From: an uncultured Christiangramia sp.
GTDB taxonomy: Bacteria > Bacteroidota > Bacteroidia > Flavobacteriales > Flavobacteriaceae
DNA length: 49,239 bases
Direction of reading: 5' to 3'
Assembly: GCF_913046405.1 (NCBI RefSeq)
Contig: NZ_CAJWRQ010000009.1
Location: 1-49,239 of the forward strand
The translations under genes were made by a program, and so were the position numbers. Of the stretch, positions 40,436-45,062 are shown in pieces. The first letter of the stretch is position 1, and every line of letters begins with the position of its first letter. The notes beneath the pieces were generated by a model, which had not been told where the DNA came from, did no database searches, and saw nothing but the letters and a program-made list of their open reading frames with translations.

Positions 40436-41416
40436 TTATAGTTGAAAGACTTCTTTGTTATGCCACCTTAGCGATTGTAGAGATGGAAACCAACGTTCTT
40501 CTCTAGGAAGCATAATTTGATTACCATCGAATTGGGTGATTGAAAACTCTGAGTTTTGATCGTCTACGGTTGGTGAAACTCGAACTATATAATCTGAATT
40601 AATTGTGATCAGCCCTCGATCAAAAGCTCTATGCATCGTTGGAGACAATGCGATACCATTAGGAACTGTGTCATCACTAGAAAGGCTGAATGGATAAATA
40701 TGGCAGGCATCAACCATTTGAACATTATTACTGGTCTCAATCTTAAGTCCAGAAATGCAACAGGTATATTCGTATATTTTTGGAATTGTTCTTTTGAACA
40801 GCCCGCCCCGAACGAAAATTTCCTCCTCGAATTCGTCATCTTTTAGGCGTTCTCTTAAGCTGATAATTTGACTCTGATAGATCTCAGATGATTCATTTAG
40901 AATGGAATTTTCGATAAAACTTTCCTCATTGGTTTTTTGTTGTTCTGAATATTGATTTTTTGTTGAAGTAAAATATTGATCCAAAATAAATTGTTCAAAC
41001 AATGTTTTTGAAATTGGATGTTGTAATAGAACATACAACTCTTTGTCTATCTCAGCATATGCCAAATTCTCTTTTAGATACTTGAAGCTTTTTATACTCT
41101 TTGATTTTGTAACTGAAATTTTACCACCAGCTTTGGGAATTAAGTACCAAAAGGGTTCAGATTTCAAATGAAAAAAGGGAAGAGAGAAATTAGCAGTGTG
41201 ACCAGTATCTACAAGTTGTTTCCAATTTCTTTTGAAGGCCAAGATTAATTCTGGAGTAATAAATATCTTAGTGGAATCAATACTTCCACCTTGAATCAAT
41301 TGAAGAATTGAAAGCAGTAAAATTGGTTTATGCGGCGCACGGCCAAGATTCTTAGAATAACCGCGGTTCAATTTCTTGAAGTAAGTTAAATATTTTGCAA
41401 TAGATTCTTCAATCAT
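40436..41416 (-). CDS. HNH endonuclease with sulfur-binding-like N-terminal domain
   Basis: A 326-residue protein. The C-terminal HNH nuclease has YTCCISGLKIE, then VDACHIYPFSLSSDDTVPNG and ALSPTMHRAFDRGLITI, giving the H-N-H residues of the HNH_2 type. The N-terminal ~110 residues (APHKPILLLSILQLIQGG, later FSLPFFHL and EPFWYLIPKAGGKISV) resemble the sulfur-binding domain of ScoMcrA-like enzymes. Those read phosphorothioate-modified DNA and join that reader to HNH. It would then be a type IV (modification-dependent) restriction nuclease. It is AT-rich and lies 9 bases downstream of the helicase gene. The SBD assignment is by pattern and needs a profile search. Confidence 0.78.
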   Translation of the reverse strand: MIEESIAKYLTYFKKLNRGYSKNLGRAPHKPILLLSILQLIQGGSIDSTKIFITPELILAFKRNWKQLVDTGHTANFSLPFFHLKSEPFWYLIPKAGGKISVTKSKSIKSFKYLKENLAYAEIDKELYVLLQHPISKTLFEQFILDQYFTSTKNQYSEQQKTNEESFIENSILNESSEIYQSQIISLRERLKDDEFEEEIFVRGGLFKRTIPKIYEYTCCISGLKIETSNNVQMVDACHIYPFSLSSDDTVPNGIALSPTMHRAFDRGLITINSDYIVRVSPTVDDQNSEFSITQFDGNQIMLPREERWFPSLQSLRWHNKEVFQL

Positions 41417-41425
41417 AAGTCAAGT

Positions 41426-44400
41426 TCATCCAACAGCTAATTTCTGACTCTCTTTTAAAATAGACGGCGGCATTGGCTCCTCTAATTTCCATTCAATATT
41501 CATGGGTTTCTCACCTGAATGACTTTGAAATATTGCCTCTCCCAAAAACACATAACCCATCGTAAATCCATACGCATCCTTAGCTTGTTCTCTCACAAAT
41601 AATAGGACGTTTTTTTCACTTTGAATATACGCTTGTCCTTTTGATGTATTTGGAGATGCACTATTTTGAGTCTGCCAGTGAAATAGATTTTTATTTAATG
41701 CATAATCCTCATACATAGTAGTAGGTGAATAATCCTTATCAGACTTTTTAAGGGTGACAAACAATGCCTCAGTATTTATAGATTTTTCATAAGATGCTCC
41801 TTCCCTACTTGGTTTAGCCTTGTCAAACTTATGCTTTCTAATGGCTACAAGAATTTGGTTACGATTATAACGACTATGAATTTTTAATGGGAATGGGAAT
41901 CCAAGATTAATAGGTTTCTCAATAAAATCTATCCTATTTAGACAATAATCAACAACTTCCACGATTTCCTGAATCATTACAGGATTTTTCTTGATTTGAT
42001 TCAAGCTTGACTGTAAGTCGTCGAAATTGAGGTCTGGACCAGATTTTTGCCATATGTCATAATGGAGCATCAAAGTTTTCAAATGATCTATTTCAGAATC
42101 CTTAGAAACTTCAAAACTATTATTATACAGTTGCTTTATAAAAGTGAGGTAACTTACTGAATTGCAATGTATCAACCTGCTACTTATAAAATTTGATATT
42201 TCTTTTTCATTAGGTTCTTCAAATTGCTGGATTATACCGGCATCTGCACAAAGTCTTTTCCAACTTCCTTTTTTATAAATTTGCTGTATTTCTAGATGAT
42301 GGAAATCTAAGAAATTATCTATAGTAAGAATTCTTGAAGAATGATGTTTGAAGTTTTGAATTTTTCTAAGAAGCTCTGGTCTTCTAAATTCCGTAGCTTC
42401 TCTAATATTGTTTAGTATTATATCTTTAGCTTTCCGCTCTAAAATAATCGAGCAGCCTAGTGGCAAATGCGGGAATTCGTCTTCGATTTCTTTGATAATT
42501 GAAGTATGTGTTCTCCCAATTAATGCTCTGAATTTATGTTCAAAATCATATTCTGGTTTTGCATTTCCTACAAAATCTAAAACTGTAAGACAATCTTTAT
42601 TCTCGGCTAAGCGAAGTCCTCTTCCTAATTGCTGCAAAAATATCGTTAGACTTTCGGTAGGACGCAAAAATAGGACCGTATCAATTTCTGGAATATCAAC
42701 ACCCTCGTTAAAAATATCAACGACAAATAAGTAATTAATTTCCTTTTTACTGAGTCTATCTTTCAAAACTGCCCTATTGGAGCTATTCCCACTTATTAGG
42801 TAATCTGCTTTCAACCCAGCAATTGTAAATTTATCAGCCATATATTTTGCATGGTCCTGACTCACACAAAAACCTAAAGCTTGCACATCATGAACATCTG
42901 TAAGGTATTCATCACAATTTTTGAGGATATCCCCAACCCGCCTATCATTTTCAGTATAGAGCTTAGTTAATTCTTTAATCTCGTATCTGCCGTTTTTCCA
43001 ACTTACATTCGTTAAATCAATAGAATCGGAAAGTGCGAAATATTGGAATGGAGATAATAACTTTCTATTTAATGCTTCAGGAAGCCGAATTTCAGCTGCA
43101 ATTTTATGATGAAAATCTTCAGTAATATCACCACCATCCATTCTTTCAGGTGTAGCGGTAAGGCCTAAAAGTATTTCAGGTTTGAATCTTCTTAATATTG
43201 GTCTATAACTATCGGCTTTGATATGATGTACTTCATCTACTATAATATAATCAAAGAAGCTCTCATCTATCTCTAAGTTCTTTAATCGACTGTTCAAAGT
43301 TTGAACAGAAGCAAAGAGCTGATCATACTTTACGGGTTCATAGCCTCCTACCCACAATTCCCCAAAATTAGAGTCTCGTAATACATGTTGAAACGTCTTT
43401 TGGGCTTGCTCTAGAATTTCTTTTCGGTGCGCAACAAATAGGAATTTTGTATTTGGATTTGAATTTCTAAAGCGTTTGAAATCGAAAGCAGAAATGACTG
43501 TTTTACCGGTTCCTGTTGCAGCCACCACCAGGTTCTTATTTCTTTTATGAATAATCCTTTCAGAATCGAGCTTGGCTAATATTTCTTCCTGATAGGGATA
43601 AGGTTTTAGATCGAAAAATGTAGTGATTTGATTTGTGCCGTAAAGACTCTGTCTTTTTAAGGAACTAATTAGTTTCTCTCTATCTCTACCGTTATTATAA
43701 TTTTCGAATTCTGGATCTTCCCAGTAAGTATCAAATGTCTTCTGAAACTTATCTATAATATGAGAGATCTCTTGGGTTGTCACTTTCAAGTTCCATTCTA
43801 GACCGTTGGTTAAGGCAGATCTCGAGAGATTAGATGAGCCTATATAACCTGTATGAAAACCTGAATTTCTCAGGAATAAGTATGCCTTCGCATGTAATCG
43901 TTCATGCTCTACATTATAGGATACTTTGATTTCAGTATTAGGTAAAGAAGATAGATATTCTACGGCTTTCGCATCTGTTGCACCCATGTAGGACGTTGTG
44001 ATAATTTTTAATTTTTTACCACTATGCGTGAACTCTTCAAGTTCCTTTTTAAAAATTCGAATTCCTGAGTATTTAATAAATGATACTAACCAACATATAG
44101 AATCAGCCGAAAGAATTTCTTTTTTAATCTCACTTTCTAAAGATATTCCAGTATTATTTCCTGTGAAAAGTTCACTTTGACTTAGGCGAGTATAGGGTGT
44201 AATTTTTTTGAGTCTATCTTTTAGATTGGAATAAGGAAAATTAGATTTTGAAAATACGGCCTCCAGTATCTTTCCTTCATTTTCTATAAGATTGTTGGTT
44301 AAATCTAAATTTTTAAGCTCTGCAGCCAATAAACTTATGATCTTATTAGATATCTCAATTTGCTTCAAGGGTCTATCCTTGTCTTTAATTTCATTTAAAG

Positions 44401-44563
44401 CAAAACGAATTGTTTCTGACAAATAAAGACTTAGATATTGGGATGCTTCCTCTTTGTCTAACGCTGTTTTACTAATATGAAATTCTTGGCAGTCAAGTGA
44501 CTCTAACTTATTTTTAATAAGCTTATTAATTAACTGCTCGTATAGCCCTGTTTCAAAACTCAT
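41426..44563 (-). CDS. PLD-nuclease / SF2 helicase / DUF3427 protein
   Basis: A 1045-residue protein. The N-terminal third carries a phospholipase D-like (HKD) motif, HAKAYLFLRNSGFHTGYIGS then SNLSRSALTNG (about residue 224). The helicase core follows: Walker A VAATGTGKT (about 350), FLFVAHRKEILEQA, DEVH box IIVDEVHHIKADSY (about 443), LLGLTATPERMDGGD and motif VI QQLGRGLRLAE (about 640). The C-terminus ends in a DUF3427-like domain (SYEKSINTEALFVTLKKSDK, LLFVREQAKDAYGFTMGYVF). Such proteins occur in defence islands and probably translocate on DNA or RNA and cut it. The gene overlaps the Nudix gene by 4 bases. Codon use is clearly more AT-rich than in the housekeeping genes. Confidence 0.87.
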   Translation of the reverse strand: MSFETGLYEQLINKLIKNKLESLDCQEFHISKTALDKEEASQYLSLYLSETIRFALNEIKDKDRPLKQIEISNKIISLLAAELKNLDLTNNLIENEGKILEAVFSKSNFPYSNLKDRLKKITPYTRLSQSELFTGNNTGISLESEIKKEILSADSICWLVSFIKYSGIRIFKKELEEFTHSGKKLKIITTSYMGATDAKAVEYLSSLPNTEIKVSYNVEHERLHAKAYLFLRNSGFHTGYIGSSNLSRSALTNGLEWNLKVTTQEISHIIDKFQKTFDTYWEDPEFENYNNGRDREKLISSLKRQSLYGTNQITTFFDLKPYPYQEEILAKLDSERIIHKRNKNLVVAATGTGKTVISAFDFKRFRNSNPNTKFLFVAHRKEILEQAQKTFQHVLRDSNFGELWVGGYEPVKYDQLFASVQTLNSRLKNLEIDESFFDYIIVDEVHHIKADSYRPILRRFKPEILLGLTATPERMDGGDITEDFHHKIAAEIRLPEALNRKLLSPFQYFALSDSIDLTNVSWKNGRYEIKELTKLYTENDRRVGDILKNCDEYLTDVHDVQALGFCVSQDHAKYMADKFTIAGLKADYLISGNSSNRAVLKDRLSKKEINYLFVVDIFNEGVDIPEIDTVLFLRPTESLTIFLQQLGRGLRLAENKDCLTVLDFVGNAKPEYDFEHKFRALIGRTHTSIIKEIEDEFPHLPLGCSIILERKAKDIILNNIREATEFRRPELLRKIQNFKHHSSRILTIDNFLDFHHLEIQQIYKKGSWKRLCADAGIIQQFEEPNEKEISNFISSRLIHCNSVSYLTFIKQLYNNSFEVSKDSEIDHLKTLMLHYDIWQKSGPDLNFDDLQSSLNQIKKNPVMIQEIVEVVDYCLNRIDFIEKPINLGFPFPLKIHSRYNRNQILVAIRKHKFDKAKPSREGASYEKSINTEALFVTLKKSDKDYSPTTMYEDYALNKNLFHWQTQNSASPNTSKGQAYIQSEKNVLLFVREQAKDAYGFTMGYVFLGEAIFQSHSGEKPMNIEWKLEEPMPPSILKESQKLAVG

Positions 44564-44973
44564 CTAAAAGTTTGTATGTAATGTTTAACAATTGGAATAT
44601 CTGCTTCCGCCCAATCAAATTTTTCTAATTGGAATACGGTTGACCATTCTATTGTAGAGTGCTCTTTTAAAATAATTTCTGAAGTTTGTAGGGAACAGCG
44701 AAATGGAATAAGTTCTATAATCTTGTTATCAGAATATTTGTGGATATTGGAAGGGAGACGTTGTATAACTTTAATATCTAATCCCAGTTCTTCTTTAATT
44801 TCTCTCCTGAGACAATTCTCCAGTGTTTCTCCAGCTTCAAGTTTCCCACCTGGAAATTCCCATTTCAAAGGATGGCTCATATTCTTACTGCGTTGCGCGC
44901 ATAATACTCTATGATTATCCTCTATCAAGGCGCAAGTAACTTGAATCAAACTGAACTTTCGATTATTTGACAA
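44560..44973 (-). CDS. Nudix hydrolase, (deoxy)nucleoside triphosphate pyrophosphohydrolase
   Basis: A 137-residue MutT-like protein. The full Nudix box is GGKLEAGETLENCLRREIKE, continuing ELGLDI (about residues 43-68); the N-terminus reads IQVTCALIEDNHRVLCAQRS. It should hydrolyse modified or canonical NTPs to the monophosphate and pyrophosphate. It is the first gene of the three-gene block, and its stop overlaps the helicase ATG (ATGA). The tight coupling suggests it works with the helicase rather than as a general house-cleaning MutT. Confidence 0.88.
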   Translation of the reverse strand: MSNNRKFSLIQVTCALIEDNHRVLCAQRSKNMSHPLKWEFPGGKLEAGETLENCLRREIKEELGLDIKVIQRLPSNIHKYSDNKIIELIPFRCSLQTSEIILKEHSTIEWSTVFQLEKFDWAEADIPIVKHYIQTFR

Positions 44974-45062
44974 TTAAAATTACAGTATTAATTCAACATT
45001 CAATTTCAAAATTTCCATTTCTTTTTAACGCTCCCTCAACATCATAAACCAGATAAAATTTA

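What the first reader, a model, noticed from the sequence alone, without database searches (positions are those of the whole stretch)
40436..44973. Candidate defence module: Nudix + PLD/helicase/DUF3427 + SBD-like HNH nuclease
Three tightly coupled genes (4-base overlap, 9-base gap) in markedly more AT-rich DNA than the neighbourhood: a nucleotide hydrolase, a helicase with its own HKD nuclease, and a nuclease with a putative modification-sensing domain. Helicase-PLD-DUF3427 proteins are found in defence islands, but I know of no settled mechanism for this combination. A working model: the HNH protein senses sulfur-modified or invading DNA, the helicase-PLD protein degrades it, and the Nudix protein alters nucleotide pools or removes a signal nucleotide. 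No dnd/ssp modification genes are in the window, so the host should be unmodified.
Basis: partly seen in the sequence, partly recalled or inferred. Interest (0 to 1): 0.7.

Follow-up and report, generated by a model that had tools for sequence, protein, structure and literature searches.

The report
Mobile modified-DNA restriction cassette with nucleotide cleaner
Three neighbouring genes travel together between bacteria and look like two enzymes that cut chemically modified foreign DNA plus a small enzyme that probably removes the matching modified DNA building blocks from the cell.

Summary
The three genes are real, intact and tightly coupled. The central 1045-aa protein is a SauUSI-family Type IV restriction enzyme (PLD nuclease, SF2 translocase, SRA-type 5mC/5hmC reader; best PDB match SauUSI, 7clg), so "no settled mechanism" does not hold for it. 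The HNH protein carries a sulfur-binding domain (best match 8h0l, solved with phosphorothioate DNA), a second Type IV nuclease. The Nudix sits beside SauUSI-like genes of both subfamilies in Bacteroidota and Bacillota, including S. aureus SauUSI itself. Its best structural match, B. fragilis 3GWY, is published as hydrolysing 5-methyl-dCTP and 5-hydroxymethyl-dCTP, the nucleotide forms of SauUSI's two DNA targets; among 198 genomes the 11 closest relatives of 3GWY all lie next to SauUSI-like genes. The trio stands together in nine loci, the window included, in three arrangements. DNA homology to two other genomes covers the trio and almost nothing else. Best reading: a mobile Type IV cassette whose Nudix keeps modified dCTP out of host DNA, preventing self-cleavage (inferred, untested). 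Against it: most SauUSI-like genes in the named sample (58 of 80) lack a linked Nudix, and 18 of 22 genomes of that kind show no close one elsewhere.

The parts
44560..44949 (-). Nudix hydrolase, probable 129-aa form from TTG 44949 (ORF open to 44973); PADLOC PDC-S07; NudG/3GWY-like, predicted 5-methyl-/5-hydroxymethyl-dCTP pyrophosphatase
   Evidence: Nudix box intact and Asp (not Asn as in MutT) at the column of the ADIP motif
41426..44563 (-). SauUSI-family Type IV restriction enzyme, 1045 aa
   Evidence: mREase_IV PDLC03659, E 4.9e-222; 7clg SauUSI, E 8e-88
43721..44125 (-). PLD nuclease domain (residues 147-281); H224-x-K226, G242-S243-x-N245 and E256 invariant in the 15 aligned homologues
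42608..43609 (-). SF2 helicase-like translocase (residues 319-652), Walker A ATGTGKT at 349
41453..42163 (-). DUF3427 match (residues 801-1037), which overlaps the coupler and target-recognition region of SauUSI; SRA pocket residues D953 and W963 invariant, F935 nearly so, in the 15 aligned homologues
40436..41416 (-). SBD-HNH endonuclease, 326 aa
40955..41404 (-). sulfur-binding domain (residues 5-154): H29-K30 and P80 invariant in 8 aligned sequences
40598..40762 (-). HNH_2 nuclease core (residues 219-273); H239, N253, H262 invariant in 8 aligned sequences
40445..45030 (.). extent of the mobile cassette: DNA homology of the fetched Christiangramia sediminis locus (13.1 kb; window 45030-40447, 76.5%) and Salegentibacter salarius locus (10.0 kb; window 44948-40445, 70.1%) covers this and nothing else in the window

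Best explanation
A mobile Type IV (modification-dependent) restriction cassette. (1) The SauUSI-like protein flips out 5mC/5hmC with its C-terminal SRA domain, translocates with its SF2 motor and shreds the DNA with its PLD nuclease (by homology to SauUSI). (2) The SBD-HNH protein is a second, separate Type IV nuclease that binds phosphorothioate DNA and nicks or cuts near it (by homology). (3) The Nudix hydrolyses 5-methyl-dCTP and 5-hydroxymethyl-dCTP to the monophosphates, so that these bases, from salvage of DNA broken down by the nuclease or from a phage, are not built into the host's own unmodified chromosome, where they would become targets of protein 1. Shown here: domains, active-site residues, the repeated pairing and the shared transfer unit. 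Inferred: Nudix substrate, and its role as a self-protection partner.
For: SauUSI membership; SauUSI biochemistry and SRA pocket from passages of PMC3874153 and PMC7913695. Nudix within 300 bp of the SauUSI-like gene: 18 of 25 family loci, 13 of 35 phylum loci, 22 of 80 named genome loci, 4 of 16 plasmid/phage loci, all 57 codirectional. In S. aureus the gene identical to 7clg over its first 655 residues begins one base after the Nudix stop codon, and that Nudix is letter for letter the solved protein 5x1x. In five Bacillota loci, one Bacteroidales MAG and three phage/viral contigs the Nudix lies downstream instead of upstream, which suggests repeated assembly. Substrate: 3GWY hydrolyses 5-Me-dCTP (kcat/Km 4.8e6) and 5-MeOH-dCTP (4.4e6) (PMC5158307). 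The top 11 of 53 matches to 3GWY in 198 genomes all adjoin SauUSI-like genes. 3GWY falls in a clade with 15 linked Nudix (SH-aLRT 95). The window Nudix model's best PDB match is 3gwy; MutT2, including its 5mdCTP complex, follows closely. Asp at the ADIP column in 59 of 59 linked Nudix, as in NudG, Asn in MutT. Three-gene cassette: nine loci including the window, three arrangements; transfer unit. A related Nudix is fused to Vsr in Collinsella (that Vsr acts at 5mC sites is recalled). S. suis: PDC-S07 and RM type IV co-localised in 23/23 (PMC12813430).
Against: Many SauUSI-like genes have no linked Nudix: 58 of 80 named loci (49 of the 69 with at least 450 bp on both sides) and 22 of 35 phylum loci. 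Of 22 genomes of that kind, 18 have no 3GWY-like Nudix anywhere at E<=1e-15, and one of the 4 matches is linked to a second SauUSI-like gene (two of the 22, G652 and G503, have under 300 bp of upstream flank). So the Nudix is not generally essential. m5C methyltransferases are scarcer in genomes with the enzyme in the family sample (5/25 vs 139/274, p 0.003), but not in the wider sample (16/38 vs 15/42, p 0.65). The window Nudix is only about 39% identical to 3GWY and lies in another, mostly linked clade. SauUSI's HxK(x)4E glutamate is Leu in the window protein, and the counterpart of methyl-contacting Tyr-831 falls in an alignment gap. No activity was measured.
Confidence: 0.55

Rival explanations
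1. The Nudix is an attacking, not a protecting, part: it destroys 5-hydroxymethyl-dCTP (or 5-methyl-dCTP) made by a phage, starving replication of phages that replace cytosine, while the SauUSI-like enzyme cuts DNA that is already modified.
For: The substrate evidence is the same as for the main reading. hm5C phages convert the dCTP pool before replication (review passage). PADLOC lists the family as a candidate defence gene in its own right, PDC-S07.
Against: An enzyme useful by itself would not need to be tied so closely to SauUSI-like genes: the stop-to-stop frames touch or overlap in 48 of the 57 adjacent cases counted (real start codons were not assigned). Removing the modification from phage DNA would blunt the partner nuclease.
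Confidence: 0.22
2. The Nudix is an ordinary MutT-type nucleotide cleaner (for example of 8-oxo-dGTP) that was picked up by chance or reduces mutation during SOS/DNA repair and has no functional tie to the nuclease.
For: Nudix enzymes are common and often promiscuous (recalled); NCBIfam also scores the window protein against a MutT model (70 bits, below cut-off). Many SauUSI-like loci do without it.
Against: Both gene orders occur; all 59 linked copies carry the NudG-type Asp instead of MutT's Asn; linked copies cluster on the tree (7 changes against 18.8 in shuffles; near-copies inflate this); Nudix and helicase distances correlate (r 0.69, 0 of 999 permutations, which shared descent alone could give).
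Confidence: 0.13
3. Unrelated defence genes gathered by defence-island clustering; the SBD-HNH in particular has no cooperation with the other two.
For: SBD-HNH is within 300 bp of a SauUSI-like gene in only 10 of 156 loci counted and mostly lives elsewhere: 4 of 22 SBD-HNH loci (one of them interrupted) adjoin one (the five not read with wide flanks lie in genomes without a helicase match). It is separable: the congener G266 carries the pair without it.
Against: Same three genes in Bacteroidota and Bacillota in different orders, with the SBD-HNH codirectional and within 80 bp in five loci; the whole trio is the homologous unit between the window and two other genomes; none of ten genes scanned at 27-46 kb of the window matches a defence family by its Pfam name. 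Chance adjacency expected about 0.001 in the phylum sample (assuming 3,300 genes a genome) against 3 seen in 2 genera, though this ignores island clustering.
Confidence: 0.35

Closest known systems
SauUSI (Staphylococcus aureus Type IV restriction enzyme; PDB 7clg)
   Same: PLD-SF2-coupler-SRA order; HxK, GSxN, Walker A, SRA Asp and Trp retained; a Nudix gene directly upstream in both
   Different: About 100 more residues before the PLD domain; Leu for the Glu of HxK(x)4E; scores best with PADLOC model PDLC03659, whereas the SauUSI-subfamily member scanned scores best with 03658; an SBD-HNH gene follows
B. fragilis Q5LBB1 / PDB 3GWY and E. coli NudG (Orf135)
   Same: Nudix box, ADxP motif with Asp, EH motif; 3gwy is the best fold match; these enzymes prefer 5-Me-dCTP over canonical substrates, and 3GWY also takes 5-hydroxymethyl-dCTP
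   Different: About 39% identical to 3GWY; substrate of the window protein not measured; NudG's annotated neighbours in K-12 include no restriction gene; the neighbours of the 3GWY gene were not seen
SBD-HNH phosphorothioate-dependent endonucleases (SprMcrA, EcoWI, SBDHga)
   Same: N-terminal SBD with H-K and pocket Pro, C-terminal HNH; EcoWI restricts PT plasmids in vivo (PMC7461809, passages)
   Different: Tyr of the usual Y-P pair is Leu, as in SBDHga1; below NCBIfam NF045808 cut-off (106 of 180 bits), although the Brevibacillus and Paenibacillaceae partners pass it with 371
PADLOC PDC-S07 + mREase_IV
   Same: The two labels fit the window's Nudix and helicase; co-localisation of PDC-S07 with RM type IV, 23/23 in S. 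suis, is in print (PMC12813430, passages)
   Different: That paper's text holds no 'nudix', 'MutT' or 'hydrolase', so no substrate is proposed there

Membership tests
SauUSI-family Type IV restriction enzyme | Whole-length homology to SauUSI | tested here: met
   7clg, E 8e-88, query 136-1011 to chain 34-915; PADLOC mREase_IV E 4.9e-222
SauUSI-family Type IV restriction enzyme | PLD HxK nuclease motif | tested here: met
   H224, K226, N245, E256 invariant in 15 sequences
SauUSI-family Type IV restriction enzyme | Full 119-H(X)K(X)4E-126 motif as published | tested here: not met
   Position of E126 is Leu in the window protein (motif)
SauUSI-family Type IV restriction enzyme | SRA target-recognition domain with Asp-858, Trp-868, Phe-841, Tyr-831 | tested here: inconclusive
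   D953 and W963 invariant, F935 nearly so; Tyr-831 falls in an alignment gap
SauUSI-family Type IV restriction enzyme | Cleaves 5mC/5hmC DNA and not unmodified DNA | not testable with these tools
   Indirect sign only: m5C methyltransferase depletion in one sample, not in the other
5-methyl-/5-hydroxymethyl-dCTP Nudix (3GWY/NudG type) | Intact Nudix box | tested here: met
   59 of 59 linked Nudix by a loose GX5EX7REXXE pattern
5-methyl-/5-hydroxymethyl-dCTP Nudix (3GWY/NudG type) | Asp rather than MutT Asn at the base-contact column (role of MutT Asn119 recalled) | tested here: met
   Asp in 59 of 59 linked and NudG, Asn in MutT
5-methyl-/5-hydroxymethyl-dCTP Nudix (3GWY/NudG type) | Groups with a characterised enzyme | tested here: inconclusive
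   3GWY lies in a clade of 15 linked Nudix (support 95), the window Nudix in another, mostly linked clade; few columns
5-methyl-/5-hydroxymethyl-dCTP Nudix (3GWY/NudG type) | NCBIfam NudG equivalog cut-off (PRK10546) | tested here: not met
   86 of 156 bits
5-methyl-/5-hydroxymethyl-dCTP Nudix (3GWY/NudG type) | Hydrolyses 5-Me-dCTP and 5-hydroxymethyl-dCTP | not testable with these tools
   Published for 3GWY only
SBD-HNH phosphorothioate-dependent endonuclease | SBD fold with HK/HR and Pro of the sulfur pocket | tested here: met
   8h0l by sequence and predicted fold; H29-K30 and P80 invariant in 8
SBD-HNH phosphorothioate-dependent endonuclease | Tyr of the Y-P pair | tested here: not met
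   Leu79 in the window; also Leu in SBDHga1, solved with PT-DNA
SBD-HNH phosphorothioate-dependent endonuclease | NF045808 cut-off | tested here: not met
   106 of 180 bits; partners L230 and L233 reach 371
SBD-HNH phosphorothioate-dependent endonuclease | Host without matching PT modification genes | tested here: inconclusive
   No DndC in own genome, which is 90% complete; Ssp genes not searched

The most novel reading that the evidence does not exclude
SauUSI-type restriction enzymes are often accompanied by a dedicated Nudix immunity protein that works at the level of the nucleotide pool: it destroys 5-methyl- and 5-hydroxymethyl-dCTP so that the host genome never acquires the base the nuclease attacks. 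This would be a self/non-self control by precursor removal instead of DNA modification or protein inhibition, packaged with a phosphorothioate-dependent nuclease into a mobile cassette.
Probability: 0.4. Interest if true: 0.8.

Novelty: new variant of a known kind. Interest (0 to 1): 0.64.

Why it matters
SauUSI is called a major barrier to gene transfer in S. aureus (title of PMC7913695), and its Nudix neighbour already has a solved structure (5x1x) labelled only as a mutator MutT protein. If the Nudix removes exactly the modified nucleotides whose DNA form SauUSI cuts, it would explain a gene pair found in Bacteroidota and Bacillota and give a simple, testable answer to how cells with modification-dependent nucleases avoid attacking themselves when they salvage modified nucleotides. 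It would also give a function to PADLOC's PDC-S07 and a physiological role to 5-modified-dCTP Nudix enzymes.

Tried and rejected
Rejected: HNH as sensor for the helicase; the helicase protein has its own SRA-type reader and nuclease and usually stands without an SBD-HNH. Rejected as first choice: MutT (8-oxo-dGTP) assignment. Rejected: a local defence island; of ten genes scanned at 27-46 kb none matches a defence family by its Pfam name and one has no match (PADLOC was not run on them, and the rest of the window was not scanned).

Tests that did not help or went against the reading: m5C methyltransferase depletion held in the family sample and failed in the wider one; a post-hoc look at seven close relatives (1 of 7, p 0.40) is too small. 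The prediction that genomes without a linked Nudix carry one elsewhere failed: 4 of 22 had a match, one of them a Nudix linked to a second SauUSI-like gene. Plasmid search with 3GWY: 9 records; two are linked (H63, H65), five read ones are not next to a SauUSI-like gene (H64, H66, H68, H70, H71), two were not read. Of the 53 matches, 30 were given as loci: 13 have a SauUSI-like ORF within 1.5 kb, 17 have not; a further one, G127, is linked (L064); the other 22 were not read. The hypergeometric figure takes 14 of 53 as linked. Viral scan: 80 loci returned; I examined only five (L252-L256) for neighbours. Of 32 plasmid and phage records with the helicase (21 + 11) I read 16. Wide flanks were not fetched for 5 of the 43 helicase-positive phylum genomes (G344, G389, G393, G467, G469); two of these have the Nudix adjacent. 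Three Nudix hits lying far from the helicase (L141, L207, L222) were left out of the linked set. Of the 22 SBD-HNH loci, 17 were read with wide flanks. Loci overlap between samples (for instance L065 and L183 look like the same genome), so sample counts are not independent. A search for SBDHga papers gave nothing of use. Literature searches for a Nudix-Type IV link and for PDC-S07 covered PMC open-licence papers only; one search listed 20 of 59 papers and one search listed 15 of 94. The 2011 SauUSI paper PMC3141236 is not held. Reading: PMC3874153, PMC7461809, PMC7913695, PMC5158307, PMC5389931, PMC7470945, PMC11514479, PMC12813430, PMC12839542, PMC7159879 as passages found by term; PMC12923530 abstract, outline and passages; others in search listings only.
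Full report
What is there. Three genes on the minus strand, in transcription order: Nudix (44973 or, more likely, 44949 to 44560), a 1045-aa helicase (44563-41426) and a 326-aa HNH protein (41416-40436), with a 4-base overlap and a 9-base gap. The stretch is AT-rich, 31-36% GC against 37-42% in the nine bins beside it, although two other bins of the window are nearly as low. The own genome (2.9 Mb, 90% complete) has one SauUSI-like gene (a second hit, E 2e-21, covers the helicase part only) and one match to the HNH protein at E<=1e-10, no PF00145 m5C methyltransferase and no DndC. Of ten genes scanned around it at 27-46 kb none matches a defence family by its Pfam name, so it looks like an isolated insertion.

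The helicase is a SauUSI-family Type IV enzyme. PADLOC's mREase_IV model covers residues 121-1037 (E 4.9e-222). The best solved relative is SauUSI itself (7clg, E 8e-88, residues 136-1011). PMC3874153 (passages) lists DUF3427 as SauUSI's C-terminal part, 5mC and 5hmC as its targets and ATP or dATP as required. PMC7913695 (passages) shows that the C-terminal target-recognition domain is an SRA fold, that in a model Asp-858 is placed to bond the flipped cytosine and Trp-868 to stack on it, and that the motor translocates. In an alignment of 15 members of both subfamilies H224, K226, N245, E256 (PLD), D953 and W963 (SRA) are invariant and F935 nearly so. Two departures: the Glu of SauUSI's HxK(x)4E is Leu, and the residue matching Tyr-831, which is thought to contact the methyl group, falls in an alignment gap. 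I therefore count family membership as shown and 5mC/5hmC specificity as likely.

The HNH protein is an SBD-HNH nuclease. Residues 5-154 match the sulfur-binding domain of Hga by sequence (E 2.2e-15), and the predicted model (mean pLDDT 77, weak around residues 230-250) matches 8h0l, that domain with phosphorothioate DNA, best; SprMcrA and ScoMcrA domains follow at weaker E-values, behind two other modification-dependent enzymes. PMC7461809 (passages) names HR/HK and YP as the relatively conserved sulfur-recognition residues: the window has HK and the Pro, with Leu for Tyr, as SBDHga1 has. It does not reach the NCBIfam cut-off for PT-dependent nucleases (106 of 180 bits), but the partners in Brevibacillus and a Paenibacillaceae strain do (371 bits).

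The Nudix is tied to SauUSI-like genes. Counting Nudix within 300 bp: 18 of 25 family loci (13 of 20 in the window's subfamily, 5 of 5 in the SauUSI subfamily), 13 of 35 phylum loci (6 of 27, 7 of 8), 22 of 80 named genome loci (16 upstream, 6 downstream), 4 of 16 plasmid/phage loci; all codirectional. The 1.37 Mb of flank searched held only three further Nudix hits at the same HMM threshold, all away from the helicase. In an S. aureus record the gene identical to SauUSI (7clg) over its first 655 residues begins one base after the stop codon of an annotated (deoxy)nucleoside triphosphate pyrophosphohydrolase, which is identical over all 130 residues to the solved 'Mutator mutT protein' 5x1x; in that record the SauUSI frame itself is interrupted further on. 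PADLOC calls these Nudix proteins PDC-S07; in S. suis, PDC-S07 and RM type IV were reported co-localised in 23 of 23 occurrences, without a functional proposal in the passages I saw (PMC12813430).

What the Nudix acts on. PMC5158307 (passages) reports that B. fragilis Q5LBB1 (3GWY) hydrolyses 5-Me-dCTP and 5-MeOH-dCTP (which I read as 5-hydroxymethyl-dCTP) with kcat/Km of 4.8e6 and 4.4e6 per M per s, 5-OH-dCTP about 50-fold less well, and canonical NTPs much less; NudG prefers 5-methyl-dCTP over CTP. Searching 198 Bacteroidota genomes with 3GWY gave 53 matches in 50 genomes. The eleven best all lie next to SauUSI-like genes; of 30 matches read as loci 13 have the SauUSI-like ORF within 1.5 kb and 17 have not (hypergeometric 5e-9, which ignores shared descent and rests on 14 linked of 53). 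On a tree of 83 rows with few columns 3GWY falls in a clade with 15 linked Nudix and nothing else (SH-aLRT 95); the window Nudix lies in another, mostly linked clade. The window Nudix model (pLDDT 94.8) matches 3gwy first, then BdRppH and MutT2 structures including the 5mdCTP complex, with NudG eleventh. All 59 linked Nudix keep the Nudix box and have Asp where MutT has Asn.

The trio recurs and moves. All three genes stand together in nine loci: the window, Christiangramia sediminis L172, Salegentibacter salarius L173, L088 (G375), L148 and L149 (one genus), Rufibacter latericius L242 (helicase frame interrupted), Brevibacillus centrosporus L230 and Paenibacillaceae L233. The arrangements are Nudix-helicase-HNH on one strand (three loci), Nudix-helicase with a convergent HNH (four) and HNH-helicase-Nudix on one strand (two). 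A MAG named Pirellula (L247) has helicase and HNH only; a Chitinophaga MAG (L188) has the HNH about 1 kb away and no Nudix. DNA homology of the fetched C. sediminis locus to the window runs from 45030 to 40447 and of the Salegentibacter locus from 44948 to 40445, and nowhere else. In congener G266 only the Nudix-helicase pair is homologous (44966-41430), and it is not beside its dinB, the window's neighbour gene. So both the pair and the trio behave as transfer units.

Mechanism. The nuclease steps follow from SauUSI and SBD-HNH precedents. That the Nudix protects the host by removing 5-modified dCTP is my inference: the pool enzyme and the nuclease would share the same chemical mark, are directly adjacent genes and travel together, as a guard and its weapon would. 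The attack model, starving hmC phages, uses the same chemistry and is not excluded. Against obligate protection: 58 of 80 named loci have no linked Nudix, and 18 of 22 tested genomes without one have no close homologue elsewhere. Other enzymes may serve there, or those relatives may read another mark; an L. plantarum plasmid carries a MazG-like hydrolase downstream of the pair. The methyltransferase test is split: depleted in the family sample (5/25 vs 139/274, p 0.003; Type I N6_Mtase at E<=1e-20 went the other way, 21/25 vs 140/274), not in the phylum sample (16/38 vs 15/42).

Novelty. Each component belongs to a known family, and the pair's co-localisation is partly in print under PADLOC labels. 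Five open-licence full-text searches (two of them with longer lists than were shown) gave no paper linking these Nudix enzymes' substrates to SauUSI-like restriction in what they listed or in the passages I read; subscription papers were not covered. The three-gene cassette and the nucleotide-pool explanation look new as a combination.

Mended: the phyla of the pair (two, not several), gene overlap (stop-to-stop frames only), the description of the neighbouring genes, and how many 3GWY matches and SBD-HNH loci were read.

Noticed in passing
L368:4495-5484: Collinsella aerofaciens gene annotated vsr is a fusion of a NUDIX domain (residues 5-127) and a Vsr mismatch endonuclease domain (197-257), another physical tie between this kind of Nudix and (as recalled) 5mC biology.
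   Followed up: partly
L103:3493-7128: On an L. plantarum plasmid the Nudix-SauUSI-like pair is followed by a MazG-like nucleotide pyrophosphohydrolase, i.e. two nucleotide hydrolases flank the nuclease.
   Followed up: partly
L227:8139-9245, L193:8162-9241, L206:1544-2659, L225:8178-8909: In some loci without an adjacent Nudix or SBD-HNH other nuclease domains adjoin the SauUSI-like gene (HNH_4, Mrr_cat, NERD), as if there were an accessory-nuclease slot; 20 neighbours were scanned.
   Followed up: partly
L236:8135-10618 and L239:2104-4959: A second PLD-helicase protein of 828 or 952 aa sits directly beside the SauUSI-like gene; Pfam sees no DUF3427 in these two. Similar second helicase ORFs appear in other loci of the same scan.
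   Followed up: partly
L123/L162 (G385:C26): A SauUSI-like stretch lies inside an open frame reported as 4425 aa without stops; assembly oddity or giant fusion.
   Followed up: no
L105: Record NZ_CP077890.1, labelled a plasmid of S. aureus, looks chromosomal (phospho-sugar mutase, scrA) and holds SauUSI pieces in opposite orientations with interrupted reading frames.
   Followed up: no
L364:3097-6044: Selenomonas plasmid pSRC2: a 3GWY-like Nudix (47% identical) lies among vWA, AAA, macro-domain and nucleoside 2-deoxyribosyltransferase genes, without an annotated SauUSI-like gene nearby.
   Followed up: no
family sample of 299 genomes: Genomes with a SauUSI-like gene have fewer m5C methyltransferases but more Type I N6 methyltransferases than the rest; the m5C part was not seen in the wider sample.
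   Followed up: partly
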